Shown here piece after piece: positions 16,763 to 28,742 of a stretch of DNA of 64,000 bases. The translations under genes were made by a program, and so were the position numbers. The notes below the pieces were generated by a model, which searched no databases, was not told the DNA's origin, and saw nothing but the letters and a program-made list of their open reading frames with translations. The stretch covers positions 248,001 to 312,000 of the forward strand of contig NZ_JAGIZA010000005.1 of assembly GCF_017813365.1 (NCBI RefSeq), in the 5' to 3' direction. The stretch is from Roseomonas indoligenes. Its GTDB lineage: Bacteria > Pseudomonadota > Alphaproteobacteria > Acetobacterales > Acetobacteraceae. Within the stretch, counting starts at the first letter, position 1. Each line of letters begins with the position of its first letter.

Positions 16763-18127
16763 ATGACGAGGCGCAGGCTGCTGTTGGAGGATGCGCTCCT
16801 GCCCTCGGGCTGGGCGCAGGGTGTCGTCCTCGAGATCGAGTCCGGCTGGATCCGCGCGGTCCAGCCCGGCGGCTCGCCGGAGGGCTGCGAGCGGGTGCCC
16901 GGCATCGCCCTGCCGGGAATGCCGAACCTGCACAGCCACACCTTCCAGCGCGCCATGGCCGGGCTGGCCGAGATCCGTGGCCCGGGCGAGGACAGCTTCT
17001 GGACCTGGCGGAACGTGATGTACGGCTTCCTCGGGCGGCTGACCCCGGAGGATGTGCAGGCCGTCGCCGCCCAGGCGATGGTGGAAATGCTGGAGGGCGG
17101 CTTCACCGCGCTGACGGAGTTCCATTACCTTCACCACGACCCCGCCGGCCGCCCCTACGACAATCCCGCCGAGATGGGCGCCCGCGTGGCCGCCGCGGCT
17201 GGTGAGACGGGAATCGGGCTCACCCTTCTGCCCGTGCTCTACACCTATGGCGGCTTCGGCGCGCAGCCCGCGACATCCGGCCAGGCCCGTTTTCTCCACG
17301 GCGTTGACGGCTATGCCCGCCTGCTCGAGGCCTCCGCCGCCGCGATCGCCCCGCTGGAAGATCCCGCGCTGGGCATGGCTCCCCACTCCCTGCGCGCCGT
17401 GGCGCCCGAGGGGCTGCGGGCGATGCTGGACATCCGGAGCGAGGGCCCCGTTCACATCCATGTCGCGGAGCAGATGCGCGAGGTGGAGGACTGCCTCGCC
17501 TGGTCCGGCCAGCGCCCCGTCGCCTGGCTGCTCTCCCATACCCCGGTGGATCCCCGCTGGTGCCTTGTCCACGCCACCCACATGGACCCGTCGGAGGTGG
17601 AGGGGCTCGCCCGCACGGGCGCCGTGGCAGGCCTCTGCCCGATCACCGAGGCCAATCTTGGCGACGGGGTTTTCGAGGCACCGGCCTTCCTCGCCGCCGG
17701 AGGCCGTTTCGGCGTCGGGTCGGATTCGAACGTGGAGATCGCCGCGCCGGGCGAGCTGCGGATGCTGGAATATTCCCAGCGCCTCGCGCGCCGCGGCCGC
17801 AACCTGCTGGCCTCGGCACCCGGCGCCTCCACCGGCCGCAGCCTCTACGAGTCGGCGCTGGCCGGTGGAGCGCAGGCGGCGGGCCGCCGCATCGGCCGCA
17901 TCGAACCCGGCCACCGCGCGGACCTCGTGGTGCTGGACCGGACGCATCCCTCCCTCGCCCTGGCCGAAGGCGACGGCTGGCTCGACACCCTCACCTTCAG
18001 CGCCGGGCCGGCCGCCGTAGACACGGTGATCGTCGGCGGCCGCAGCGTGGTCACCGGCGGGCGGCACCACCGGCGGGAGGAGATCGCCGGGCGCTACAGG
18101 GCGGCTATGGCCGGGCTGGCGGGCTAG
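16763..18127 (+). CDS. hutF: Formimidoylglutamate deiminase
   Basis: A 454-aa amidohydrolase-superfamily enzyme that converts N-formimino-glutamate to N-formyl-glutamate in the five-step histidine pathway. Metal ligands are visible in 'GMPNLHSHTFQRAMAGLAE' (HxH), the His in 'GPVHIHVAEQMREVEDC', 'LVHATHMD' and the Asp in 'GVGSDSNVEI'. These blocks and the length match HutF. No other hut genes are in the window. It ends convergently with the FMN monooxygenase gene, the two stop codons sharing the palindrome CTAG. A deaminase role for another substrate cannot be excluded. Confidence 0.88.
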   Translation: MTRRRLLLEDALLPSGWAQGVVLEIESGWIRAVQPGGSPEGCERVPGIALPGMPNLHSHTFQRAMAGLAEIRGPGEDSFWTWRNVMYGFLGRLTPEDVQAVAAQAMVEMLEGGFTALTEFHYLHHDPAGRPYDNPAEMGARVAAAAGETGIGLTLLPVLYTYGGFGAQPATSGQARFLHGVDGYARLLEASAAAIAPLEDPALGMAPHSLRAVAPEGLRAMLDIRSEGPVHIHVAEQMREVEDCLAWSGQRPVAWLLSHTPVDPRWCLVHATHMDPSEVEGLARTGAVAGLCPITEANLGDGVFEAPAFLAAGGRFGVGSDSNVEIAAPGELRMLEYSQRLARRGRNLLASAPGASTGRSLYESALAGGAQAAGRRIGRIEPGHRADLVVLDRTHPSLALAEGDGWLDTLTFSAGPAAVDTVIVGGRSVVTGGRHHRREEIAGRYRAAMAGLAG

Positions 18128-19422
18128 GCCGCCCGTCCCGGCCGTTCCAGCCCCAGGTTCTCCCGCAGGGTCGTCCCAGCATACTCCTGCCGGAACAGCC
18201 CGCGCTCCTGCAGGATCGGCACGACGAGACCGACGAAATCCTCGAACCCCTCGTGGAACCAGGGCGGCATGACGTTGAACCCGTCCGCCGCGCCCCCGGT
18301 GAACCACTGCTCCAGCGTGTCCGCGATCCGCTCCGCCGAACCGCAGAGAACCCAATGCCCCCGCGCCGCGGCCGTAAGGTTGTAGAGGTCGCGCAACGTC
18401 ATGCCCTCCCGCCGCGCCTTGCCCAGCATCACGCTCGCGAAGCTGTGGTAGGTATCGGGCAGCGGGATGTCGGGGATCGGGCCGTCCAGGTCGTAGCCGC
18501 CCATGTCCACGCCGAGGCGGTCGCTGAGGAGCTGCCGGGCATTGCCGCCGTCCACGAAGCCCTGCAGCACGGCCAGCTTGTCGAAGGCCTCCTTGTCCGT
18601 GCGCCCCACCACGGGCATCACGCCGGGCAGGATCGTCACATCCTCCGGCCGTCGTCCGAGCGGCGGCAATCGCGCCTTGAGGGCGGCGTAGCCCGCGCGC
18701 GCCTCCTCAAAGTCCTGCACCACGGAGAAGACGACATCCGCCGTCGCCGCCGCCAGCGCATGCCCGGGCTCCGACCCGCCGGCCTGCAGCACCACCGGAT
18801 GGCCTTGCGGCGAGCGCCCGATATTGACCGGCCCCTTCACCTGAAAATGCGGGCCGTCATGGTCCAGCGCCCGCACCCGGGATGGATCGATGTAGAGGCC
18901 GCTTGAGCGATCGGCCACCACGGCGTCGTCCGCCCAGCAATCCCATAGCCCCTTCACCACCCCCAGGAACTCGCGCGCGATCGCGTAGCGCTCCGCGTGG
19001 TTAGGATGCAGCTTGCCGAAGTTCGGTGCGGCAGCCGGGCTCGCGCCCGTCACCGCGTTCCAAGCCGCGCGCCCGCCGCTGATATGATCGAGCGAGGCGA
19101 AGGCGCGCGCGACGGTGAAAGGATCGCTGTAGGTGGTGGCCACCGTCGCGCCCAGCCCGATATGGGTCGTGCTCGCCGCCAGCGCCGAGAGCATCGTCAG
19201 CGGCTCCAGCCGCAGCGTGTAGGACGGATGGGCGGCCGGATCGGCGTAGAGGTTGTCGCCCATGAAGATCATGTCGAACCGGCCACGCTCCGCCGTCCGC
19301 GCGATCTGCCGTAGCGCCGCCATGTCCTGGAAGCTGTCCACCGCGCCGGGGTAGCGCCAGCCCGCGACATGGCTGCCTGTTCCCAGCAGGAACAGGCCCA
19401 AATGCATTTGCCGCGCGCTCAT
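18124..19422 (-). CDS. FMN-dependent LLM monooxygenase (NtaA/SnaA/DszA group)
   Basis: A 432-aa bacterial luciferase-like monooxygenase that needs reduced FMN. Group blocks are 'MHLGLFLLGTGSHVAGWRYP', 'TAERGRFDMIFMGDNLYAD', 'LDHISGGRAAWNAVTGASP' and 'RSPQGHPVVLQAGGSEPGHALA'. Relatives oxidise nitrilotriacetate, sulfones or heterocycles. It is the last gene of the leftward ABC operon and overlaps the permease stop by 4 bp (ATGA), so it most likely attacks the compound that transporter imports. No flavin reductase gene is adjacent. Confidence 0.87.
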   Translation of the reverse strand: MSARQMHLGLFLLGTGSHVAGWRYPGAVDSFQDMAALRQIARTAERGRFDMIFMGDNLYADPAAHPSYTLRLEPLTMLSALAASTTHIGLGATVATTYSDPFTVARAFASLDHISGGRAAWNAVTGASPAAAPNFGKLHPNHAERYAIAREFLGVVKGLWDCWADDAVVADRSSGLYIDPSRVRALDHDGPHFQVKGPVNIGRSPQGHPVVLQAGGSEPGHALAAATADVVFSVVQDFEEARAGYAALKARLPPLGRRPEDVTILPGVMPVVGRTDKEAFDKLAVLQGFVDGGNARQLLSDRLGVDMGGYDLDGPIPDIPLPDTYHSFASVMLGKARREGMTLRDLYNLTAAARGHWVLCGSAERIADTLEQWFTGGAADGFNVMPPWFHEGFEDFVGLVVPILQERGLFRQEYAGTTLRENLGLERPGRAA

Positions 19423-20156
19423 CGCCAGAAGATCACCTTTCGCTCCACCCAGCCGATCAGCCCGAAGAAGGCAAGGCTGATGGCCGATGCCACGAAGATG
19501 GCCGCCCAGACCTGCACGAAGTCGATCTGCACCACCGCCTGGTATATGATCCAGCCGAGGCCGCTCCGCGCGCCCAGCATCTCCGTCACGATCGCCACGA
19601 TCAGGCTGCGCACGGTCGCCACCCGCATCCCCGCGGCGATCAGCGGCATTGCCGCCGGCAGCCGCAGCCGCCACAGCACCGAGGCCTGACCCGCGCCGAA
19701 GCTCCGCAGCAGGTCCACGGACCGCCGATCCACCCGGTCGAACCCCGCCAGGGCGCTGAGGAAGACGGTGAAGCCCACGGCCAGCGTCACCATCACGATC
19801 TTGGAGGAGACGCCGATCCCGAACCACAGCAGCACCAGCGGCGAATAGGCCGCCACCGGCACGGAGTTCACCGCCATCACCACCGGCATGATTCCCGTGC
19901 GCGACCAGGGCAGGATGGTGATGACGGTCGCGAGCGCGATCCCGATGGCCGTGCCGAGGCCGTAGCCCAGCAGCGCTTCCAGCAGCGTGGTCGCGCCGCC
20001 GGACAGCAGATCGGCCCGCTGCGCCCAGATCCCGCCGAGGATCTCGCTCACCGCCGGCAGCGTATAGGAAGGCAGCGCGAATCCCCGCGCCGAACCCTCC
20101 CAGAGCAGGACGATCAGCACGGCGCCCAGCACGCCGCGCATCGCGGAGCGGCTCAC
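19419..20156 (-). CDS. ABC transporter permease (second subunit)
   Basis: Inner-membrane permease of 245 aa from the GTG at 20156, chosen because it overlaps the stop of the upstream permease (GTGA) and has a G-rich ribosome-binding site; an ATG 5 codons later is possible. It has about six membrane segments, and the EAA-like loop is 'VDLLRSFGAGQASVLWRLRLP' in two parts. It belongs to the SsuC/ThiX/NrtB permease group and probably pairs with the neighbouring permease as a heterodimer. Confidence 0.88.
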   Translation of the reverse strand: MSRSAMRGVLGAVLIVLLWEGSARGFALPSYTLPAVSEILGGIWAQRADLLSGGATTLLEALLGYGLGTAIGIALATVITILPWSRTGIMPVVMAVNSVPVAAYSPLVLLWFGIGVSSKIVMVTLAVGFTVFLSALAGFDRVDRRSVDLLRSFGAGQASVLWRLRLPAAMPLIAAGMRVATVRSLIVAIVTEMLGARSGLGWIIYQAVVQIDFVQVWAAIFVASAISLAFFGLIGWVERKVIFWR

Positions 20157-20962
20157 GCTTCCGCCCCCCAGAACACCAGATATCGCTCGGCCAGGGCCAC
20201 CAGCGCGTAGAACCCCGTGCCCAGGACGGCGGCGCAGAGGATGGCCGCCCACATCACCGTCACCTGCTCCGTGTACATGGCCTGAAGCAGGATGACGCCG
20301 AGCCCGGTCGTGTCCCCGAACCACTCCCCCACGATCGCGCCGACAAGGCTGAGCGAGGCGCCAAGCCGCAGCGCGACGAAGATCTGCGGCAGGGCCGAGG
20401 GCAGCAGCAGCCGCAGCAGGACCTGCCGCCCCGTCGCTCCGAAGCTGCGCAGCAGCGCCATCTGGCGCGGGTCCACGGATTGCAGCCCCACCAGCGTGTT
20501 CACCGTGACGGGGAAGAAGGTGAGATAGAAGGCGATCACCGCCTTAGCCAGCAGCGTGTTCCCGAACCACAGCACCACCAGCGCCCCGAAGGCGATGACG
20601 GGAATGGTCTGGGACACCACGAAGACCGGGAACAGCATGTCCCGCAGAACCGGCGCCCGCAGGAACAGGACCCCGTTCAGAACGCCCACCGCGACGCCGG
20701 CCGCGAAGCCGATCAGCGTCTCCAGCGCGGTCCGCAGGAAGCCCGCCGCATAGGCCTCCGGCGTCGCCGCGATCGTGGACAGGATCGCGCTCAGCCGCGG
20801 CAGGTATTCCGGTCGGATGCCGAAGCCCAGCACCGCCCCTTCCCAGACCGCCGCCGCGATGCCGAGCCCGAGCACAAGCCTTCCCAGCCCCATCAGGACG
20901 GGCGCGGCGCGGCGCAAGCCTGCCGCGCCGCGCGGGGCCGGGAGGGCAACGGCCCCGCTCAA
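20153..20962 (-). CDS. ABC transporter permease (first subunit)
   Basis: A 269-aa inner-membrane permease. The TTG at 20962 overlaps the binding-protein stop (TTGA). The EAA loop is around 'MALLRSFGATGRQVLLRLLLP' (read in two parts) followed by 'GAIVGEWFGDTTGLGVILLQ'. It belongs to the group that transports thiamine precursors, riboflavin, nitrate or sulfonates. A second permease gene overlaps its end, so the channel is probably a heterodimer rather than a homodimer. Confidence 0.88.
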   Translation of the reverse strand: MSGAVALPAPRGAAGLRRAAPVLMGLGRLVLGLGIAAAVWEGAVLGFGIRPEYLPRLSAILSTIAATPEAYAAGFLRTALETLIGFAAGVAVGVLNGVLFLRAPVLRDMLFPVFVVSQTIPVIAFGALVVLWFGNTLLAKAVIAFYLTFFPVTVNTLVGLQSVDPRQMALLRSFGATGRQVLLRLLLPSALPQIFVALRLGASLSLVGAIVGEWFGDTTGLGVILLQAMYTEQVTVMWAAILCAAVLGTGFYALVALAERYLVFWGAEA

Positions 20963-21963
20963 GCCATCCGATCCGCGACGGGGATTGCCGCCAGGAAGCT
21001 GCCGTCATAGGCCTTGGCGAGATCGACCGGCTGCTTGATCACGTCGTTCTGGCGCAGGAAGTCATGCGCCGAGCGGATTGCAGCGTCGTCGATCCAGAAC
21101 AGCCCCTGCTGCGCGGCGGCGCCGGCCGTCATCAGCTTCCCGGCCTCCACCAGCATGAATTCCTGGTGCGCGCGGTCGAGCGCGGGCGAGGCCGCCATCA
21201 CGACGTCCACGCCCGCCTTCTGGTCCTTCAGCGCGTCCCGCCACCCCTTGATCGAGGCGCGCAGGAAGCCGCGCACCGTCTCCGGCTTCTGCCGCGCCGT
21301 CGTCTCGCTCACGATCAGCGTGTCGCGCGGGAAGGTGATGCCCTCGTCCTCGGCCACGAAGGTTCGCAGCTTCTCGCGGCCCATGCGGGTCATCAGCGTG
21401 TAGAACTCGTTGTACTTCGTGGCCGTCACCACATCGATCTGCCCTTCCACGAAGGGCGTCACGGAGACCTGCTGCGGCTGCATGGTGAAGTCGCCCGGCT
21501 TCAGCCCGATCTTCGCCAGCATACCCAGCAGCACGTAGTTTGCGCCGGTGTACCAGGTGGTGACCGTCTTGCCCTTGAAGTCCTGCAGCGTGCGGATCGG
21601 ACCATCGGCGCGCGTCACGAAGAAGAAAGGCGTCTGCTGGTGCGAGACGCCGATGCAGACCACCGGCAGATTCTTCTCCCGCGCCGCGAAAACGCTGTCC
21701 GTCCCGCCGGAGAGGCCGAAGGTATCCGCCCCCGTGGCCACCAGGTTCTCCGTCAGCAGGTTCGGCCCGCCGGGATTGATCGTGAGATCGATGCCCTCGG
21801 CTTCATAGTAGCCGCGCGCCTTGGCAAGGTAGAAGCCGGCGAACTGCGTCTGCGCCAGCCACTTCAGCCGCAGCGTCGCCTTCTGCGTGCCCTGGGCGCG
21901 CGCGACGAAGGGAAGGATGGCAGGCGCCGCGGCGGCGGCCGTGAGAAGGGTGCGCCTCTGCAT
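20959..21963 (-). CDS. THI5/NMT1-type ABC substrate-binding protein
   Basis: A 334-aa periplasmic binding protein with signal peptide MQRRTLLTAAAAAPAILPFV. 'LKWLAQTQFAGFYLAKARGY' is the characteristic start of the NMT1/THI5 family, whose bacterial members (ThiY, RibY) bind pyrimidine precursors of thiamine or riboflavin. The ATG at 21963 follows AAGGAG. The combination with an FMN monooxygenase suggests uptake of an N-heterocycle for breakdown, not cofactor salvage. The ligand is not shown by the sequence. Confidence 0.85.
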   Translation of the reverse strand: MQRRTLLTAAAAAPAILPFVARAQGTQKATLRLKWLAQTQFAGFYLAKARGYYEAEGIDLTINPGGPNLLTENLVATGADTFGLSGGTDSVFAAREKNLPVVCIGVSHQQTPFFFVTRADGPIRTLQDFKGKTVTTWYTGANYVLLGMLAKIGLKPGDFTMQPQQVSVTPFVEGQIDVVTATKYNEFYTLMTRMGREKLRTFVAEDEGITFPRDTLIVSETTARQKPETVRGFLRASIKGWRDALKDQKAGVDVVMAASPALDRAHQEFMLVEAGKLMTAGAAAQQGLFWIDDAAIRSAHDFLRQNDVIKQPVDLAKAYDGSFLAAIPVADRMA

Positions 21964-22028
21964 GGGTCCGGTCTCCTTGGGGGTGCCCCGATGGGCGTTG
22001 GTGTTCGTGGTCCGGCCGGCGCCGGTGG

Positions 22029-22829
<801 letters not shown>

Positions 22830-22852
22830 GGGCTCAGGCAAACCGGGAGGAT

Positions 22853-22864
22853 CCTTGTATAAGG
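22853..22864. promoter_or_regulatory. Palindrome upstream of ABC operon (GntR-site candidate)
   Basis: CCTT-GTAT-AAGG, a perfect 4-bp-arm palindrome 23 bp before the ATPase start. It contains TTGTAT, which also appears inverted in the gntR upstream element at 22995-23006. It may be an operator of the divergent GntR protein. Confidence 0.35.
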
Positions 22865-22994
22865 AGCATGTCTCCCGGCATGCAGATAGCGGGATTACCC
22901 CTCCGGCTCAGCAACCGCCATGCCAGCCACGCCTTTCTCGAAGCAGCGCCCACCGCGAAGGGTCCAAATTCAGCGGCACGGGATATGCTGCTCG

Positions 22995-23021
22995 GCATAC
23001 AAAATTGAGGAAATTGCACAC
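22995..23021. promoter_or_regulatory. Possible GntR operator directly upstream of gntR
   Basis: GCATACAAAATT (22995-23006) and AAATTGCACAC (23011-23021) abut the gntR start. The same words, GTATGCAA and AAATTGC, occur in the perfect palindrome after gntR (23742-23768). This suggests autoregulation by the same protein. Confidence 0.4.
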
Positions 23022-23023
23022 AC

Positions 23024-23734
23024 ATGAGCGAAGCTGAGGCCTGCCAGGAGGCAACCCGCCCAGGAATGAGGCAGGAACCCCTCTCCGTCACCGGGGGCGA
23101 GACGCTCGCCAGCGCCCTGCGCCGGCGCCTGGAAGCCGATATCGCCGATGGTCGCCTGGACCCGGGCACCCGCCTGGACGAGCAGGACGTCGCCCAGCGC
23201 TTCGGCGTCTCCCGAACCCCGGTGCGCGAAGCCTTCCGCCTTCTCGCCTCAGACCGCCTGGTCGAGCTGCGCGGGCGACAAGGCGCCGTGGTCCGCAGCA
23301 TCGGCGTCCACACGCTGATCGAGATGTTCCAGGTCATGGGCGAACTGGAAGGCCTTTGCGCCCGCCTCGCGGCTCGCCGTGCCTCACCGCGCCAGCTGGA
23401 GCGGATGACGGCCATCCACGCCCGCCTGGAAGCCGCCGCGGAAAGCGGCCCGGACCTCTTCTACGATGTGAACCAGGAGTTCCACGAAGCCATCTACGAG
23501 GCTTCCTGCAATGTCTTCCTGGCCGAGGAGACGCGGAAGCTCCGCAACCGCGTCGCTACCTACCGCCGCCGTGTCACCCGCATGCCGGACCGGATCCGCG
23601 ACACCATCCGGGAGCATGCGGAAATCATGGATGCCATCGCCGGCCGCGACCCGGAACGCGCCCACTCCGTCATGCGCTCTCACCTCACCCTTCTCGGCGA
23701 CAACCTTCTGGACTTCATCGCAGCCTTCGAGTGA
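23024..23734 (+). CDS. GntR-family regulator (FCD type)
   Basis: A 236-aa regulator. An N-terminal winged helix is seen in 'LDEQDVAQRFGVSRTPVREAF', typical of GntR, followed by an all-helical FCD ligand domain with likely metal-binding His in 'FHEAIYEAS', 'IREHAEIMDAI' and 'HLTLL'. It lies between a leftward transporter/monooxygenase operon and a rightward SDR/hydrolase operon, with related elements on both sides. It is therefore the likely substrate-responsive switch for the whole locus. Confidence 0.9.
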   Translation: MSEAEACQEATRPGMRQEPLSVTGGETLASALRRRLEADIADGRLDPGTRLDEQDVAQRFGVSRTPVREAFRLLASDRLVELRGRQGAVVRSIGVHTLIEMFQVMGELEGLCARLAARRASPRQLERMTAIHARLEAAAESGPDLFYDVNQEFHEAIYEASCNVFLAEETRKLRNRVATYRRRVTRMPDRIRDTIREHAEIMDAIAGRDPERAHSVMRSHLTLLGDNLLDFIAAFE

Positions 23735-23741
23735 GAGGTTG

Positions 23742-23768
23742 GTATGCAAATTGCTGCACCTTGCATAC
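23742..23768. promoter_or_regulatory. Perfect inverted repeat, probable GntR operator
   Basis: GTATGCAA (23742-23749), an 11-bp spacer, and TTGCATAC (23761-23768): arms match exactly. It lies between the gntR stop and the SDR start, 19 bp before the SDR start. It is AT-rich against a GC-rich background. Regulation of the rightward operon by the neighbouring GntR is inferred. Confidence 0.6.
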
Positions 23769-23787
23769 TGAACATCGGAGCCTTTCC

Positions 23788-24570
23788 TTGAAGCTCGATC
23801 TTACCGGCAAGACGGCCCTCATCACCGGCGCCTCCAAGGGCATCGGCCTCGCTTGCGCCGAGGTCTTGGCGGAGGAGGGCTGCCACCTCCACCTCGCCGC
23901 CCGCAACGGCGCCGCCATGGAGGATACGGCCGCCCGCCTGCGCGCCGACCACGGCGTGCGCGTCACCGTCCACGCGGCCGACCTCGGCAGCACCCCCGCC
24001 ATGGAGGCCCTGGCCGAGGCGGCGGGCGAGATCGACATCCTCGTCAACAATGCCGGGGATATCCCCTCCGGCAACCTCGCCTCCGTCACGGACGAGGCGA
24101 TCCGGCGCGGCTTCGACCTGAAGGTCTTCGGCTACATCGCCCTCACCCGCCTCTTCTACCCGCGCATGAAGGCGCAGGGCGGTGGCGTGGTGATCAACGT
24201 GATCGGCAACAGCGGCGAGAACTGGGACGCCGCCTACTTCGCAGGCTCCACCGGCAACGCCGCCCTCATGTCCTTCTCCAAGGCCATCGGCGGCCGCAGC
24301 CTGGACGACGGTATCCGCGTGGTGGGCATCAACCCCGGCCCTGTCGCCACGGACCGCATGCTGAAGATCATGCGCACCAAGGCGATCGACATGCTGGGCG
24401 ACGCGGAGCGCTGGGAGGAGCTGTTCGACAAGTACCCGGGCAAACGCCCCGCGACGGCGCGGGAATGCGCCGATCTCGTCGCCTTCATGGCTTCCCCCCG
24501 CGCCGGCTACATCACCGGCACCGTCGTCACCATCGATGGCGGCATCGCCGCCCGCGGCTCGGTGATCTGA
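23788..24570 (+). CDS. SDR-family oxidoreductase with altered active site
   Basis: A 260-aa Rossmann-fold protein. The NAD(P) motif TGASKGIG is at residues 13-20 and NNAG at 87-90. The catalytic YxxxK motif is changed: Y150 is followed at +4 by S154, not Lys, in 'AAYFAGSTGNAALM'. The start is TTG 23788 with GGAG 8 bp upstream, in the only frame matching the family. It is the first gene of the rightward operon and lies 2 bp before the aminotransferase-like gene. It may reduce a pathway aldehyde or ketone, or be catalytically atypical. Confidence 0.85.
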   Translation: MKLDLTGKTALITGASKGIGLACAEVLAEEGCHLHLAARNGAAMEDTAARLRADHGVRVTVHAADLGSTPAMEALAEAAGEIDILVNNAGDIPSGNLASVTDEAIRRGFDLKVFGYIALTRLFYPRMKAQGGGVVINVIGNSGENWDAAYFAGSTGNAALMSFSKAIGGRSLDDGIRVVGINPGPVATDRMLKIMRTKAIDMLGDAERWEELFDKYPGKRPATARECADLVAFMASPRAGYITGTVVTIDGGIAARGSVI

Positions 24571-24572
24571 CC

Positions 24573-25718
24573 ATGCCGCTCGACGCCACCGAGAAGGCCC
24601 TCGTCCGCAACCGCTACTTCGACGAACTGACGGCCACCCCAGACCTGGCCTGGATGGGCCAGAACACCAACCACATCGCCGCCCACCCCGCCGTGCGCGC
24701 GGCGATGGTGGCCGCGATCGAGGGCGGCGAGTTCAATGCCTACGCCCCGCCGCTCGGCTTCGAGGCCCTGCGCGCCGCCATCACCGCCGATCTTGGCGTA
24801 CCCGGTGCGGAGGCGCTGGTGACGGAGGGCGGGGTGAACGCCCTGGCCCTCGTCTGCCGCGCCCGCTGCAAGCCCGGCACCCGCTTCGTCACCACCGATC
24901 CCAGCTGGAAGTGGCCGCTGATGTTCGCCCGGCAGGCCGGCGCCGAGGTGGTGGAGATCCCGATCTACGACCCGGGCACGCAGTACAAGCTGACGCCGGA
25001 GGCCCTGGCCGCCGCGGTCGATCACACCACGACGGTCATCTACCTGGTGGACCCCAACAACCCCCTCGGCATCCGCTACACCGCCGAGGAGATCACGGCC
25101 TTCGCGCGGATCGCCAGGGATTGCGGCGCCCTGCTGGTGCATGACTGCACCTACCGCGATTTTGCCGACGGCCACCATCCCGCGCTCAAGGTCGCGCCGG
25201 AGCACTCCGTCGTCTCCCTCTCCTTCTCCAAGTGGCTCGGCCTCGCCGGCATGCGGATCGGCGCCCTCGTCACGCCCCGCGGCCTTTTCGGCGAGTTCGC
25301 GGCCCAGGCCACCAGCGTGCTCGGCGCCAGCGTCATCGCTCAGCGCGCGGCGCTGGCTGGCCTCTCCGTCAAGAAGGAATGGATGGAGGAGGTTCGCCGG
25401 ATCGACACCGCCAACAAGGTCATGATCCGGGACGCCGCCGCCGCTATCGGCCTGACCTGCCCCGTCTGGCCCAGCCACGGCAACTTCCTGGTGCTGGAGA
25501 CCGGCGCAACCGGCCTGCGCCCGGAAGCTCTGGTGGAGGCCGCCCGGCGCCGCGGCATCATGATCCGCCAGGGCACCTATCACACGGAGCGCTTCGGCGA
25601 CCGCTTCATCAAGGTCAGCACCTCCGTTCCCACCGAATGGGCCGAGCGCCTGCGCGACGCCTTCCCCGCCATCGCGGCGGAGGCGCGCACCCTCAACGAC
25701 GTCGCGCCGCAGTTCTGA
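24573..25718 (+). CDS. Class I/II PLP-dependent aminotransferase
   Basis: A 381-aa fold-type I aminotransferase. 'IYLVDPNNPLGIRYTAEEI' and 'LLVHDCTYRDFADGHH' are the substrate/PLP contact blocks, and the PLP lysine lies in 'SLSFSKWLGLAGMRIGALV'. The overall layout resembles histidinol-phosphate and aspartate aminotransferases. It is the second gene of the GntR-linked operon, between an SDR and an alpha/beta hydrolase, so it probably acts on an amino or keto intermediate. The substrate is unknown. Confidence 0.86.
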   Translation: MPLDATEKALVRNRYFDELTATPDLAWMGQNTNHIAAHPAVRAAMVAAIEGGEFNAYAPPLGFEALRAAITADLGVPGAEALVTEGGVNALALVCRARCKPGTRFVTTDPSWKWPLMFARQAGAEVVEIPIYDPGTQYKLTPEALAAAVDHTTTVIYLVDPNNPLGIRYTAEEITAFARIARDCGALLVHDCTYRDFADGHHPALKVAPEHSVVSLSFSKWLGLAGMRIGALVTPRGLFGEFAAQATSVLGASVIAQRAALAGLSVKKEWMEEVRRIDTANKVMIRDAAAAIGLTCPVWPSHGNFLVLETGATGLRPEALVEAARRRGIMIRQGTYHTERFGDRFIKVSTSVPTEWAERLRDAFPAIAAEARTLNDVAPQF

Positions 25719-25729
25719 AGGGGCACACC

Positions 25730-26611
25730 ATGCCGCGCATCACCACGAAGGACGGGATCGGCCTGCACTACGAGGAGGTCGGCGAGGGCACGCCGATCCT
25801 CTTCATCCACGAGTTCGGCGGCAATCACGAGAGCTGGGAGCCGCAGCTTCGCCACTTCTCCCGCCGCTATCGCTGCATCACCTACGCCGCGCGCGGCTAC
25901 CCGCCCTCCGACGTGCCGACGGAGCTGGACCGGTACAGCCAGGCCATCGCGGCCGACGATGCCGTCGCCGTCCTGGACGCCCTCGGCATCGAGAAGGCCC
26001 ACATCGTCGGTCTCTCCATGGGCGGCTTCTGCACCGTCCATTTCGGTCTCCGCACGCCGGAGCGCGCCCTGTCGCTGACCGTCGCCGGCGCAGGCTACGG
26101 CTGCGAGAAGGAGTTCGAGGAATACTTCCGCGGTGTCTCCCGGGAGGTGGCGGATCAGTTCGAGAGCATGGGCGCCGAGGCCTTCGCCCCCATCTACGGC
26201 TCCGGCGCCTCCCGCGTGCAGTTCCAGAACAAGGACCCGCTGGGCTGGCAGGAATTCGTGGACCGGCTGGCCACACATGACCGCGTCGGCGCCGCCATGA
26301 CCATGCGCGGCGTCCAGGCCCGCCGCCCCTCCTTCTGGGACCTTGAGGACGAGCTGAAGGCGATGCCGGTCCCCACCCTCGTCGTCGTGGGCGATGAGGA
26401 CGACCACTGCCTACAGCCCGGCATCTACCTAAAGAAGACTATCCCGGCCTGCGGCCTCTCGATCTTCCCCAAGACCGGCCACACGCTGAACCTCGAGGAG
26501 CCGGCCGCGTTCAATGCCCTGCTCTCCGAGTTCTTCGCTCAGGTTGAGCACGGCGCCTGGAAGGTGCGCGACCCCCGCGCCCTCCCCGGCCAGGTGATGA
26601 AGACGAAGTGA
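25730..26611 (+). CDS. Alpha/beta-fold hydrolase
   Basis: A 293-aa hydrolase. It has the oxyanion block 'LFIHEFGGNHESWEPQL', the nucleophile elbow GLSMGG, the acid in 'VVGDEDDHC' and the catalytic His in 'FPKTGHTLNLEEP'. Related enzymes cleave enol-lactones, amides or C-C bonds in ring catabolism (PcaD, RutD and others). It lies 11 bp after the aminotransferase and overlaps the next gene by 4 bp. Hydrolysis of a ring-opening product is the inference. Confidence 0.87.
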   Translation: MPRITTKDGIGLHYEEVGEGTPILFIHEFGGNHESWEPQLRHFSRRYRCITYAARGYPPSDVPTELDRYSQAIAADDAVAVLDALGIEKAHIVGLSMGGFCTVHFGLRTPERALSLTVAGAGYGCEKEFEEYFRGVSREVADQFESMGAEAFAPIYGSGASRVQFQNKDPLGWQEFVDRLATHDRVGAAMTMRGVQARRPSFWDLEDELKAMPVPTLVVVGDEDDHCLQPGIYLKKTIPACGLSIFPKTGHTLNLEEPAAFNALLSEFFAQVEHGAWKVRDPRALPGQVMKTK

Positions 26612-27840
26612 AGCCGCGAATCGACGCGGACCGGCTCTGGCAGCGCCTCATGGCGCTGGCGGAGATCGGCGCCCTGCCCGGCGGCGGCGTGGACCGTCAG
26701 GCCCTCTCCCCCGGCGAGACCGAGGCCTGGCGCCTCGTCATCGCTTGGGGTGCGGACGCGGGAATGGAGCCGTCCACCGACCCCGCCGGGAACCTCTTCC
26801 TCACCCTGCCCGGCCGCGACCGCGCCCTGCCGCCGCTGGTGATGGGCAGCCACCTCGACACCCAGCCCACCGGCGGCAAGTTCGACGGCGCCTTCGGCGT
26901 CCTCGCCGCGCTGGAAGCCGCGCAATCCCTCGGCGCCATCCCCGCGCGGGACGTCACGGTCGTTGCCTGGATGAACGAGGAGGGCAGCCGCTTCGCCCCG
27001 GGCATGATGGGATCGGAAGCCTTCGCCGGCGTCCGCCCGCTGGACGACATCCTCGCTGCGGGCGACGCGGCGGGCACCACGGTTGCCGAAGCCCTGGCCG
27101 CGCTGCACGCCGCCTTTCCCGCCATCCCCCGCCGCCCGCTGGGCTTCCCGATCGGCTTTTACCTGGAGCCGCATATCGAGCAGGGTCCGGTGCTGGAGCA
27201 GCGCCATGCCCCCATCGGCATCGTCACCGGCATTCAGGGCAAGAAGACCTGGGAAATGGTGGTGCAGGGCCAGGAGGGCCATGCCGGCACGCTGGACATG
27301 GCCGACCGCCACGACGCCCTCGCCGCCTTCGCCCGCATGGCGGACGCGATGTTCAGGGAAGTCGGCACAACCGACTCCATCATCAAGCTCACTATCGGCC
27401 TGGTGCGGATGGAGCCCAATGCCCCTTCCGTCGTCCCCGCGCGCCTGACCTTCCGCATCGACCTGCGCCATCCCGACAACGCCGTCCTGGACGCCGCGGG
27501 GGAAAGGCTTGAGGTCCTGGCCGCCACCCATGCCCCGCCCTGCACGGTCCAGGTGAGGCGCCTCGTCGATGCCCCTTCGAACGACTTCGATCCCGGCCTC
27601 CGCGCCTGCATCGCCGCGGCCGCTGAGGCCCTGGGCCACGCCGCGATGCCCATCCTCTCCGCCGCGGGCCACGACGCCCGCCACATGGCGCCGCTCTGCC
27701 CCGCCGCCATGATCTTCATCCCCTGCCGTGACGGCGTGAGCCACGCGGAGCACGAATGGGCTGAGCCAGCCCATGTCGCCGCCGGCGCCGCCGTGCTGGC
27801 GGAGGTGGCGGCGGGCCTCGTCCTGGAGCCCGCCGCATGA
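26608..27840 (+). CDS. M20-family N-carbamoyl-amino acid / allantoate-type amidohydrolase
   Basis: A 410-aa binuclear metallo-hydrolase. It shows 'VMGSHLDTQPTGGKFDGAFG' (metal His/Asp), 'VVAWMNEEGSRF' (catalytic Glu), 'LEPHIEQGPVLE' and 'SAAGHDARHMAPLCPAAMIF'. This set is typical of N-carbamoyl-L-amino acid hydrolase, allantoate amidohydrolase and beta-ureidopropionase, which release NH3/CO2 from ureido compounds. The GTG start at 26608 overlaps the previous stop (GTGA). In this operon it fits removal of a carbamoyl or amide group from an opened heterocycle. Confidence 0.88.
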   Translation: MKPRIDADRLWQRLMALAEIGALPGGGVDRQALSPGETEAWRLVIAWGADAGMEPSTDPAGNLFLTLPGRDRALPPLVMGSHLDTQPTGGKFDGAFGVLAALEAAQSLGAIPARDVTVVAWMNEEGSRFAPGMMGSEAFAGVRPLDDILAAGDAAGTTVAEALAALHAAFPAIPRRPLGFPIGFYLEPHIEQGPVLEQRHAPIGIVTGIQGKKTWEMVVQGQEGHAGTLDMADRHDALAAFARMADAMFREVGTTDSIIKLTIGLVRMEPNAPSVVPARLTFRIDLRHPDNAVLDAAGERLEVLAATHAPPCTVQVRRLVDAPSNDFDPGLRACIAAAAEALGHAAMPILSAAGHDARHMAPLCPAAMIFIPCRDGVSHAEHEWAEPAHVAAGAAVLAEVAAGLVLEPAA

Positions 27841-28742
27841 GCGACATGGCCGACCTGCCCGTGCAACTGCCGGAGGCGCCGCGCAGCGCCGCCGCCGGGA
27901 GAGCGCGCTTCTTCAACTCCGGCAACGCCTTCAACATCAAGCTGCCGCCCGTCCCCGCCGCAGACTTCGCCGCGGTGCTCGCGGAAGCGGAGGCACCCGG
28001 TGCCCGCACCGGCCTCTACGCCTGCGACCAGGCCGGCGCGCTGGGCTGCCCCTTCCCCGCCACCACCCCGTTGATGCTGGCGCGCTACGCTCGCATCCGC
28101 CCCGGCGAGACCCTGGCGCTGGATCTGACGGCCACCGGCCTCATCGTCCACGCGCTGCGCGGCCGGGGAGACGCCGGCGACTTCACCTGGGACGCCGGCG
28201 ACATCTTTCTCCTCCCCGGCGGCCCGGCGGCCCTGCACGCGAGCGAGGACACCCTCCTCTGGATCGTCACGGACGAGCCTCTGCTGGCCCTGGACGCCGC
28301 CCGTCCCGGCCCCGTCCCGCTCGCGCCAGTCCACTACCCCGCACCCGAGATCGAGCGGCAGCTCGCGATCCTCGCGGACTGCACCACCAACCCCGGCACC
28401 TCGGGCCTGGCCGTGATCTTCTCGTCCGACACGCTGGAGGCGGCGCGCAACCTCACCCCCGTCCTCACCCTCTCGCTCAACACCCTGCCACCGGGCGATG
28501 CCCAGCCGTCGCACCGCCACAACTCCGCGGCCGTCACGCTCGTCCTGCAGGGTGATCGCTGCTACTCCACCATCGGCGACCAGCGCTGCCTCTGGACGCC
28601 CGGCACCACCCTCGTCACCCCGCCGGGCGAGCCGCATTCCCACCACAACGGCGGCGCAGTGCAGGCGCGCTTCCTGATCGTCCAGGATGGCGGGCTGCAC
28701 TATCACGCCCGCACTATGGGCTTCGCCTTCCTGGATCGGTGA
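27837..28742 (+). CDS. Two-cupin-domain protein
   Basis: A 301-aa bicupin. The N-terminal barrel lacks the usual His cluster, while the C-terminal barrel keeps metal-ligand candidates in 'QPSHRHNSAAVTLVLQG' and 'PPGEPHSHHNGG'. This layout recalls gentisate dioxygenase-like proteins, but length and sequence do not settle the reaction. The start overlaps the previous stop (ATGA), so it is the last gene of the rightward operon. It may be a dioxygenase or an isomerase for a pathway intermediate. Confidence 0.8.
   Translation: MSDMADLPVQLPEAPRSAAAGRARFFNSGNAFNIKLPPVPAADFAAVLAEAEAPGARTGLYACDQAGALGCPFPATTPLMLARYARIRPGETLALDLTATGLIVHALRGRGDAGDFTWDAGDIFLLPGGPAALHASEDTLLWIVTDEPLLALDAARPGPVPLAPVHYPAPEIERQLAILADCTTNPGTSGLAVIFSSDTLEAARNLTPVLTLSLNTLPPGDAQPSHRHNSAAVTLVLQGDRCYSTIGDQRCLWTPGTTLVTPPGEPHSHHNGGAVQARFLIVQDGGLHYHARTMGFAFLDR

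What the first reader, a model, noticed from the sequence alone, without database searches (positions are those of the whole stretch)
18124..28742. Two-armed locus resembling an undescribed oxidative N-heterocycle (pyrimidine-like) breakdown pathway
The left arm encodes a THI5/NMT1-type importer, whose relatives bind pyrimidine precursors of thiamine, with two permeases and an FMN monooxygenase. The right arm encodes an SDR, an aminotransferase, an alpha/beta hydrolase, an M20 carbamoyl/ureido hydrolase and a cupin. A GntR regulator sits between, with shared sequence elements on both sides. The uracil Rut pathway also combines a luciferase-family ring-opening monooxygenase, an amidohydrolase, an alpha/beta hydrolase and a reductase, but none of the rut genes as such is present. 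A parallel pathway for hydroxymethylpyrimidine or another ureide-forming heterocycle would fit.
Basis: inference. Interest (0 to 1): 0.68.

Follow-up and report, generated by a model that had tools for sequence, protein, structure and literature searches.

The report
GntR-controlled nucleobase-like breakdown gene cluster
A conserved two-armed set of bacterial genes, apparently switched by one regulator, probably imports and breaks down an unusual nucleobase-like ring compound by a route made of enzymes unlike those of the known uracil pathways; the compound itself is still unknown.

Summary
Left arm: THI5/NMT1 ABC importer plus an NtaA/DmoA-family FMN monooxygenase. Right arm: SDR, aminotransferase, alpha/beta hydrolase, M20 carbamoylase-family hydrolase, cupin. 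A GntR gene lies between. Both arms are kept in 68 of the 80 nearest relatives, in different gene orders. A TTGYATA element occurs three times in 64 kb, all in the two intergenic regions. A class II aldolase, present in 76 of 80 relatives, is missing here.

The heterocycle idea gains support. The four-gene core (SDR, aminotransferase, alpha/beta hydrolase, M20) sits elsewhere with nucleoside hydrolase (20 of 80), with a nucleoside-type transporter, uridine-phosphorylase-like and deoC operon (2 plasmids), or with deaminase-like amidohydrolases (1 locus). The Rut analogy is weak: the monooxygenase fails the RutA model, a TauD/TfdA dioxygenase takes its place in some relatives, and a RutA orthologue exists elsewhere in this genome. 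HMP is not specifically supported.

The SDR lacks YxxxK and resembles AerF; the aminotransferase appears to lack the usual alpha-carboxylate Arg. I propose a modular route: import, oxidative trimming, then reduction, ring hydrolysis, decarbamoylation and transamination of a uracil-like ring. No substrate is shown.

The parts
18124..19422 (-). FMN-dependent monooxygenase, NtaA/DmoA (LLM) family
   Evidence: TIGR03860 523.6 bits, cut-off 279.7; 73 of 80 relatives at >=60% identity
19419..20141 (-). ABC permease 2
   Evidence: PF00528; 74 of 80 relatives at >=55%
20153..20962 (-). ABC permease 1
   Evidence: NCBIfam ABC permease models, below cut-off; 74 of 80 relatives at >=55%
20959..21963 (-). 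NMT1/THI5-type periplasmic binding protein
   Evidence: PF09084 176.8 bits; best named hits among solved structures are ThiY, THI5 and THI13, below an unnamed binding protein; 74 of 80 relatives at >=55%
22029..22841 (-). ABC ATPase (start may be 22829)
   Evidence: NCBIfam taurine/sulfonate/nitrate ATPase models, below cut-off; 76 of 80 relatives at >=65%
22855..22861 (.). operator half-site TTGTATA upstream of the left arm
   Evidence: one of only 3 TTGYATA in 64 kb; 43 of 58 homologous gaps have the motif
23024..23734 (+). GntR/FCD regulator
   Evidence: PF00392 and PF07729; best NCBIfam hit TIGR03338, below cut-off; 75 of 80 relatives at >=45%
23743..23767 (.). operator dyad TATGCAA-N11-TTGCATA in front of the right arm
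   Evidence: TATGCA-N9-15-TGYATA in 56 of 58 homologous gaps and once in the window
23788..24570 (+). atypical SDR (PRK06125 subfamily), no YxxxK (G153/N157)
   Evidence: NF004779 398.9 bits, cut-off 261; G153 and N157 in 87 of 87; nearest solved relative AerF
24573..25718 (+). fold-type-I PLP aminotransferase (PRK06225), Lys347 near the usual alpha-carboxylate Arg position
   Evidence: NF004870 515.7 bits, cut-off 351; K347 in 87 of 87
25730..26611 (+). alpha/beta hydrolase, GxSxG Ser and apparent Asp/His of the triad conserved
   Evidence: PF00561; 78 of 80 relatives at >=55%; conservation line
26608..27840 (+). M20 hydrolase of the hydantoinase/carbamoylase family (ureido-acid hydrolase)
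   Evidence: TIGR01879 357.1 bits, cut-off 204; metal-site residues checked kept in 84-85 of 85, R287 and Ser274 (for Asn) in 85 of 85
27837..28742 (+). cupin, C-terminal half like gentisate dioxygenase; accessory
   Evidence: PF07883; gentisate dioxygenases the best solved relatives; 45 of 80 relatives at >=50%

Best explanation
The locus is one GntR-regulated catabolic unit for a nucleobase-like N-heterocycle, most likely a substituted uracil-type ring. The NMT1-type ABC system imports it; the FMN monooxygenase (in relatives a TauD/TfdA dioxygenase, or sarcosine-oxidase-like FAD proteins) removes or oxidises a substituent, with the class II aldolase (lost here) as a further trimming step; the four-gene core then takes the ring apart: the AerF-like SDR reduces a conjugated C=C, the alpha/beta hydrolase opens or cleaves the product, the M20 enzyme removes the carbamoyl group of the resulting ureido acid, and the aminotransferase takes the nitrogen off the amino acid. 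An inducer from the pathway would lift GntR from the TTGYATA operators on both sides. Shown here: gene content, co-conservation, shared sequence elements, non-canonical SDR site, conserved metal-site and Arg residues of the M20. Inferred: that GntR binds the elements, the substrate class, the order of steps and every reaction.
For: Both arms in 68 of 80 nearest relatives, in a divergent layout (e.g. Roseomonas, Bradyrhizobium, Methylobacterium, Pseudomonas) and a differently ordered one (Rhizobiaceae, Rhodobacteraceae); 5 of 5 other AT-positive genomes in the 150-genome scan of the window's order have both arms. Plasmids: the 7 records with the binding protein (E<=1e-60) are all among the 9 with the aminotransferase (E<=1e-40). 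Shared element on both arms. Nucleobase links: nucleoside hydrolase in 20 of 80 loci; BMP-type transporter, uridine-phosphorylase-like enzyme and deoC in line with the core, phosphopentomutase divergent, on two Rhizobium plasmids that are 98% alike in these genes; 8-oxoguanine-deaminase-like amidohydrolase (396.7 bits, cut-off 532) near the core in L162. Among solved structures the binding protein's best named hits are ThiY and THI5, and no hit up to E 10 is named as a sulfonate binder. M20 is a carbamoylase-family enzyme with invariant Arg287. SDR lacks Tyr/Lys in 87 of 87; AerF is top by sequence and Foldseek; that AerF is a conjugate (ene) reductase is recalled.
Against: No substrate or activity is shown. 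In more distant relatives the oxidising arm is often different or not found (LLM in 6 of 17 AT-positive genomes of 397), so the pathway need not have one substrate. Of 33 cluster genomes tested (picked from the 80), 22 also have RutA or PreA, so plain uracil is an unlikely target there. The aldolase found in 76 of 80 relatives is missing here, so the locus may be incomplete. 60 of 80 loci have no nucleoside hydrolase. In the structural second look AerF is tied with ordinary sugar reductases. The cluster is uncommon: 3 genomes besides the window's own among the 398 of a phylum-wide scan and, among Gammaproteobacteria, only the centre itself of 369.
Confidence: 0.42

Rival explanations
1. A parallel Rut-like route: the FMN monooxygenase opens a pyrimidine ring directly (thymine or another pyrimidine), M20 replaces RutB, the alpha/beta hydrolase RutD and the SDR the malonic-semialdehyde reductase.
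For: Same set of enzyme classes; LLM enzyme, carbamoylase-type M20, alpha/beta hydrolase and SDR all present.
Against: LLM is NtaA/DmoA family, 54.7 bits against a RutA cut-off of 498.3; alpha/beta hydrolase 71.7 against 238.5 for RutD; a TauD/TfdA dioxygenase stands in its place in L100 and L165 and with the same kind of importer and aldolase in Tistrella; in 9 genomes with the core but no LLM at the locus, none has an LLM above 50% identity to it at E<=1e-60.
Confidence: 0.15
2. Breakdown of the thiamine pyrimidine (HMP or aminomethylpyrimidine), in the style of the vitamin B6 pathway (recalled): aminotransferase on an aminomethyl group, SDR on the hydroxymethyl group, class II aldolase as decarboxylase, oxygenase, then hydrolases.
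For: Binding protein's best named solved relatives are ThiY/THI5; the aminotransferase seems to lack the alpha-carboxylate Arg, as would suit an amine substrate; a class II aldolase is usually present in relatives.
Against: No TPP riboswitch or any Rfam family at the gathering threshold in the region or in 7 relatives; M20 is of the carbamoylase family, not needed for a C2-methyl ring; nucleoside hydrolase and phosphorylase partners do not fit HMP; SDR lacks the catalytic Tyr/Lys of alcohol dehydrogenases.
Confidence: 0.12
3. A purine-ureide branch (allantoate/ureidoglycine): M20 as allantoate or ureidoglycolate hydrolase, cupin as ureidoglycine aminohydrolase, aminotransferase as ureidoglycine transaminase.
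For: M20 hits allantoate models (385.7 bits, below that model's cut-off of 452); nucleoside hydrolase in relatives.
Against: AllC 214.9 against 597.75; the cupin's only two NCBIfam hits at E<=0.001 are gentisate- and aminosalicylate-dioxygenase models, below cut-off, and it is absent at >=50% identity from 35 of 80 loci; the 25 models shown for the aminotransferase (of 65) hold no ureidoglycine transaminase.
Confidence: 0.08
4. An organosulfonate or other aliphatic scavenging system with an unrelated amino-acid operon that merely shares a regulator.
For: SsuA-family model hits the binding protein below cut-off; LLM and TauD enzymes are both classes known (recalled) for desulfonation, and they replace each other here; the Tistrella dioxygenase's best model is taurine dioxygenase, 225 bits against 313.
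Against: SsuA_fam 73.1 against 163.5, SsuD 44.4 against 510; no hit named as a sulfonate binder among solved structures; nucleoside partners of the core.
Confidence: 0.13

Closest known systems
Rut pathway (E. coli rutABCDEFG)
   Same: Oxidative N-heterocycle degradation with an LLM flavin monooxygenase, an alpha/beta hydrolase, an amide/carbamoyl hydrolase and a reductase
   Different: No gene here is a rut orthologue by model and E. coli RutB-G have no tblastn hit at 1e-5 in the window; importer, regulator, M20, aminotransferase and SDR are different; LLM exchangeable with TauD/TfdA
Reductive pyrimidine pathway (dihydropyrimidine dehydrogenase, dihydropyrimidinase, beta-ureidopropionase)
   Same: M20 hydrolase of the family that holds N-carbamoyl-beta-alanine amidohydrolase and beta-alanine synthase and, as proposed, a reduction, ring hydrolysis, decarbamoylation, transamination order
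   Different: No dehydrogenase or dihydropyrimidinase among the genes annotated in the locus; an atypical SDR and an alpha/beta hydrolase would have to take their place (inference)
ThiY / THI5-type pyrimidine-precursor proteins
   Same: NMT1/THI5 family; ThiY, THI5 and THI13 are the best named solved relatives
   Different: Weak similarity (37-45 bits); ligand unknown; no thiamine gene among the locus genes annotated
AerF of Microcystis aeruginosa (SDR)
   Same: Top hit by sequence and Foldseek; Asn in place of the SDR Lys in the printed alignment
   Different: About 35% identity; a biosynthetic enzyme of aeruginosin (recalled), solved with 4-hydroxyphenylpyruvate; tied with ordinary SDRs in VIA-align

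Membership tests
Rut pathway | RutA pyrimidine monooxygenase (TIGR03612, cut-off 498.3) | tested here: not met
   54.7 bits for the locus enzyme; a RutA orthologue lies elsewhere in the genome, 68% identity
Rut pathway | RutB-RutG in the locus | tested here: not met
   tblastn of E. coli RutB-G on the whole window: no hit at 1e-5; RutD model 71.7 against 238.5
Reductive pyrimidine pathway | dihydropyrimidine dehydrogenase (PreA type) | tested here: not met
   best match in the genome is on another contig, 95 bits, 36% identity over residues 90-320 of 411
Reductive pyrimidine pathway | dihydropyrimidinase (cyclic amidohydrolase) | not tested
   none of the genes annotated in the locus is one; the genome was not searched for it
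Reductive pyrimidine pathway | ureido-acid hydrolase of the M20 carbamoylase family | tested here: met
   TIGR01879 357.1 against 204; R287 and metal-site residues conserved
NtaA/DmoA family of FMN monooxygenases | TIGR03860 above cut-off | tested here: met
   523.6 against 279.7
Thiamine/HMP salvage | NMT1/THI5-type binding protein | tested here: met
   PF09084 176.8 bits; this feature alone does not decide
Thiamine/HMP salvage | TPP riboswitch near the genes | tested here: not met
   0 Rfam matches at the gathering threshold in 16-32 kb and in 7 related loci
Aliphatic sulfonate utilisation (Ssu/Tau) | SsuA-family binding protein and SsuD monooxygenase above cut-off | tested here: not met
   73.1 against 163.5; 44.4 against 510
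Purine ureide pathway | AllC allantoate deiminase above cut-off | tested here: not met
   214.9 against 597.75
Classical SDR | YxxxK catalytic motif | tested here: not met
   G153 and N157 at these positions in 87 of 87; that YxxxK defines classical SDRs is recalled
Any pathway named here | substrate and reactions | not testable with these tools
   needs growth tests, ligand screen, enzyme assays

The most novel reading that the evidence does not exclude
A complete pyrimidine-ring breakdown route built from enzymes unrelated to those of the known pathways: an AerF-like SDR without YxxxK does the ring (or ureidoacrylate) reduction, an alpha/beta hydrolase the ring opening, an M20 enzyme the decarbamoylation and an aminotransferase that apparently lacks the alpha-carboxylate Arg the last step; exchangeable front modules (FMN monooxygenase, 2-oxoglutarate dioxygenase, sarcosine-oxidase-like FAD proteins, deaminases, nucleoside hydrolase or phosphorylase) feed differently modified nucleobases into it.
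Probability: 0.2. Interest if true: 0.85.

Novelty: new variant of a known kind. Interest (0 to 1): 0.6.

Why it matters
If true, a core with 353 relatives in one scan of 84,980 species genomes would explain how a scattered set of bacteria use modified nucleobases that the Rut and reductive pathways may not take, and would add a new ring-reduction and ring-opening chemistry. The four-gene core, its exchangeable oxidases and the clean shared element make it directly testable. The SDR and aminotransferase, both with unusual active-site residues, are worth characterising whatever the substrate.

Tried and rejected
HutF (16763-18127) was considered as part of the unit because it abuts the monooxygenase; neither it nor the CorA-like gene has a tblastn hit (1e-15) over half its length in the 94 related loci compared (L015-L108), so both were dropped. 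The UgpC/UgpA genes to the right hit the related loci only at 28-50% identity, taken as ABC-transporter cross-hits, and were dropped. Uracil as the sole target was rejected: of 33 cluster genomes 13 match RutA (11 at 57% identity or more, 2 at 37-38%), 11 match PreA, 22 match at least one and 11 neither. A single-sequence structure of the SDR was poor (mean pLDDT 52); the 15-sequence model is usable (79.7, pTM 0.84). In the VIA-align second look, AerF is tied with sorbose and xylulose reductases, so the fold alone does not single out an ene reductase. Distance correlation between genes (Spearman 0.78-0.85 across arms, 0.86-0.88 within, 69 loci) shows shared history but has no unlinked control. 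Paper searches for a described pathway or for AerF/BacG support found nothing useful in the listings (titles and abstract starts only, no paper was opened).


Full report
What is there. The window is from a high-GC genome close to Roseomonas (Roseomonas pecuniae locus L031 has an aminotransferase 96% identical). The monooxygenase belongs to the NtaA/DmoA family (TIGR03860, 523.6 bits against 279.7); this genome has 12 near-full-length matches to it, itself included, the next one 56% identical. The M20 protein is in the hydantoinase/carbamoylase family, the SDR in PRK06125, the aminotransferase in PRK06225.

The two arms belong together. A pattern scan of named species genomes with an aminotransferase alignment found 353 relatives and kept the best 80. 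Of these 80, SDR is in 80, alpha/beta hydrolase 78, M20 78, LLM (>=60% identity) 73, binding protein (>=55%) 74, GntR (>=45%) 75, cupin (>=50%) 45; 68 have LLM, binding protein, M20 and SDR. Three of the seven loci without LLM (L073, L083, L086) end where the gene would lie; the plasmid relative L015 has it further out. These 80 were picked by aminotransferase similarity, so they are not an unbiased sample. In the window's order 6 of 150 genomes, own included, have the aminotransferase, and the 5 others all have both arms. The layout differs between lineages: divergent arms in Acetobacteraceae, Bradyrhizobium, Methylobacterium, Xanthobacter, Azorhizobium and Pseudomonas, another order in Rhizobiaceae and Rhodobacteraceae. 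On plasmids the 7 records with the binding protein are all among the 9 with the aminotransferase. The cluster is uncommon: 3 genomes besides the window's own in a phylum-wide scan of 398, and in the Gammaproteobacteria-centred scan only the centre of 369.

Shared element. TTGYATA, counted on both strands, occurs 3 times in 64 kb: 22855 before the left arm, and 23743 and 23761 as a dyad before the right arm. In 58 loci of the divergent layout (window included) it is in 43 and 56 of the two gaps, against shuffle means of 1.9 and 0.9 loci and, over 100 shuffles, maxima of 6 and 4 loci (mononucleotide shuffles, related loci). That GntR binds it is inferred.

A missing part. A class II aldolase (PRK07044 subfamily, 358.6 bits against 207 for the L094 copy) is in 76 of 80 relatives (>=60% identity), for example between binding protein and ATPase in L031, L036 and L073. 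It is absent here; the best match in the window's genome is 52% identical and lies outside the window. The four relatives without it are L038, L101, L103 and L105. The window locus may have lost a step or use a paralogue.

Partners of the core elsewhere. Nucleoside hydrolase is in 20 of 80 loci (the L101 copy scanned), in Rhizobiaceae and Rhodobacteraceae mostly with a sugar-type ABC importer, and in L101, L103 and L105 with an ECF transporter S component and a sarcosine-oxidase-like protein. Rhizobium plasmids CB3060 and CB3171 have a BMP-type ABC importer, the core, a uridine-phosphorylase-like protein (218.7 bits in CB3171, below the cut-off of 280.3; the CB3060 copy is 98% identical) and deoC in one direction, phosphopentomutase divergent, and deoA further on; being so alike they count as one observation. 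In an order-wide scan, made with the CB3171 aminotransferase, 17 of 397 genomes had a match. Fourteen new loci were read: LLM in 3 of 14, TauD/TfdA with an HD protein in 1, a sarcosine-oxidase-like protein in 3, two deaminase-like amidohydrolases in 1, an amidase in 2 (one of them also counted for LLM). The three genomes fetched before all have LLM (72-78% identity), so 6 of 17. The four core genes stand together in 12 of the 14; in L168 the SDR lies about 6 kb from the other three, and in L169 the stretch ends before an SDR is seen. The core is thus the constant part and the front end varies.

LLM is replaceable. In Pseudomonas viridiflava (L100) a TauD/TfdA dioxygenase sits in the same locus between binding protein and aldolase, and the genome has no LLM above 48% identity to the window's. 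Tistrella has an importer with a 55% identical binding protein, an aldolase (64%) and TauD/TfdA together in a second locus on the plasmid that carries the core; L165 has the same set with the core. So the first oxidation is something both chemistries can do. Hydroxylation with loss of a substituent fits NtaA- and TauD/TfdA-type enzymes (recalled) better than a RutA-type ring opening.

Unusual active sites. In the SDR, Gly153 and Asn157 stand at the YxxxK positions in 87 of 87 sequences. The closest solved relative by sequence and Foldseek is AerF, whose printed alignment also shows Asn at the Lys position; that AerF and the related BacG (YwfH) add hydride to a conjugated C=C is recalled, not from a call. 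In the aminotransferase the Arg that binds the alpha-carboxylate aligns with Phe345 or, shifted two residues, Lys347; Lys347 is in 87 of 87. Arg344, also invariant, is one residue off and could stand in, so this is a lead only. The M20 keeps Arg287 (85 of 85) and the metal-site residues checked (84-85 of 85) but has Ser274 in 85 of 85, where the five printed structure relatives have Asn. The roles of these residues are recalled.

Not the cell's only uracil pathway. The window's genome has a RutA orthologue on another contig, with no tblastn hit (1e-5) to E. coli RutB-G in a 16-kb stretch around it. Of 33 genomes with the cluster, picked from the 80, 13 match RutA (11 strongly), 11 match PreA, 22 match at least one, 11 neither. 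A modified pyrimidine or related base is therefore more likely than uracil.

Verdict. A real, co-conserved unit with a shared regulatory element; nucleobase-like substrate class favoured; the detailed reactions are inference. I found no description of it in the listings of the paper searches named under Tried and rejected, which cover open-licence papers only.

Noticed in passing
window 16763-18127: A clear hutF (formimidoylglutamate deiminase, 667.5 bits) abuts the monooxygenase gene tail to tail, with a 4-base overlap, but has no homologue in the related loci compared.
   Followed up: partly
own genome C12:30208-31287 (L124): An orphan RutA orthologue, 68% identical to E. coli RutA, with no hit to rutB-G in the 16 kb fetched around it.
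   Followed up: partly
own genome: Twelve near-full-length matches to the NtaA/DmoA-family monooxygenase in one genome.
   Followed up: no
L165 12.6-18.9 kb; L135 10.0-17.1 kb: TauD/TfdA dioxygenase together with a conserved HD-domain protein (64% identical between the two loci), which recalls the PhnY/PhnZ pairing (recalled).
   Followed up: no
L101 2.2-9.2 kb: ECF transporter with an S component nearest the CD3073 family (139 bits, below cut-off), nucleoside hydrolase and sarcosine-oxidase-like proteins in front of the core; same S component, hydrolase and oxidase in L103 and L105.
   Followed up: partly
L085 14185-15168: The nucleoside hydrolase has DTDTAGDD instead of the usual DTDPGxDD (motif recalled), so its specificity may be unusual.
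   Followed up: no
L134 12001-12882: Microvirga lotononidis plasmid has the alpha/beta hydrolase (64% identity) without the rest of the core within the 25 kb read.
   Followed up: no
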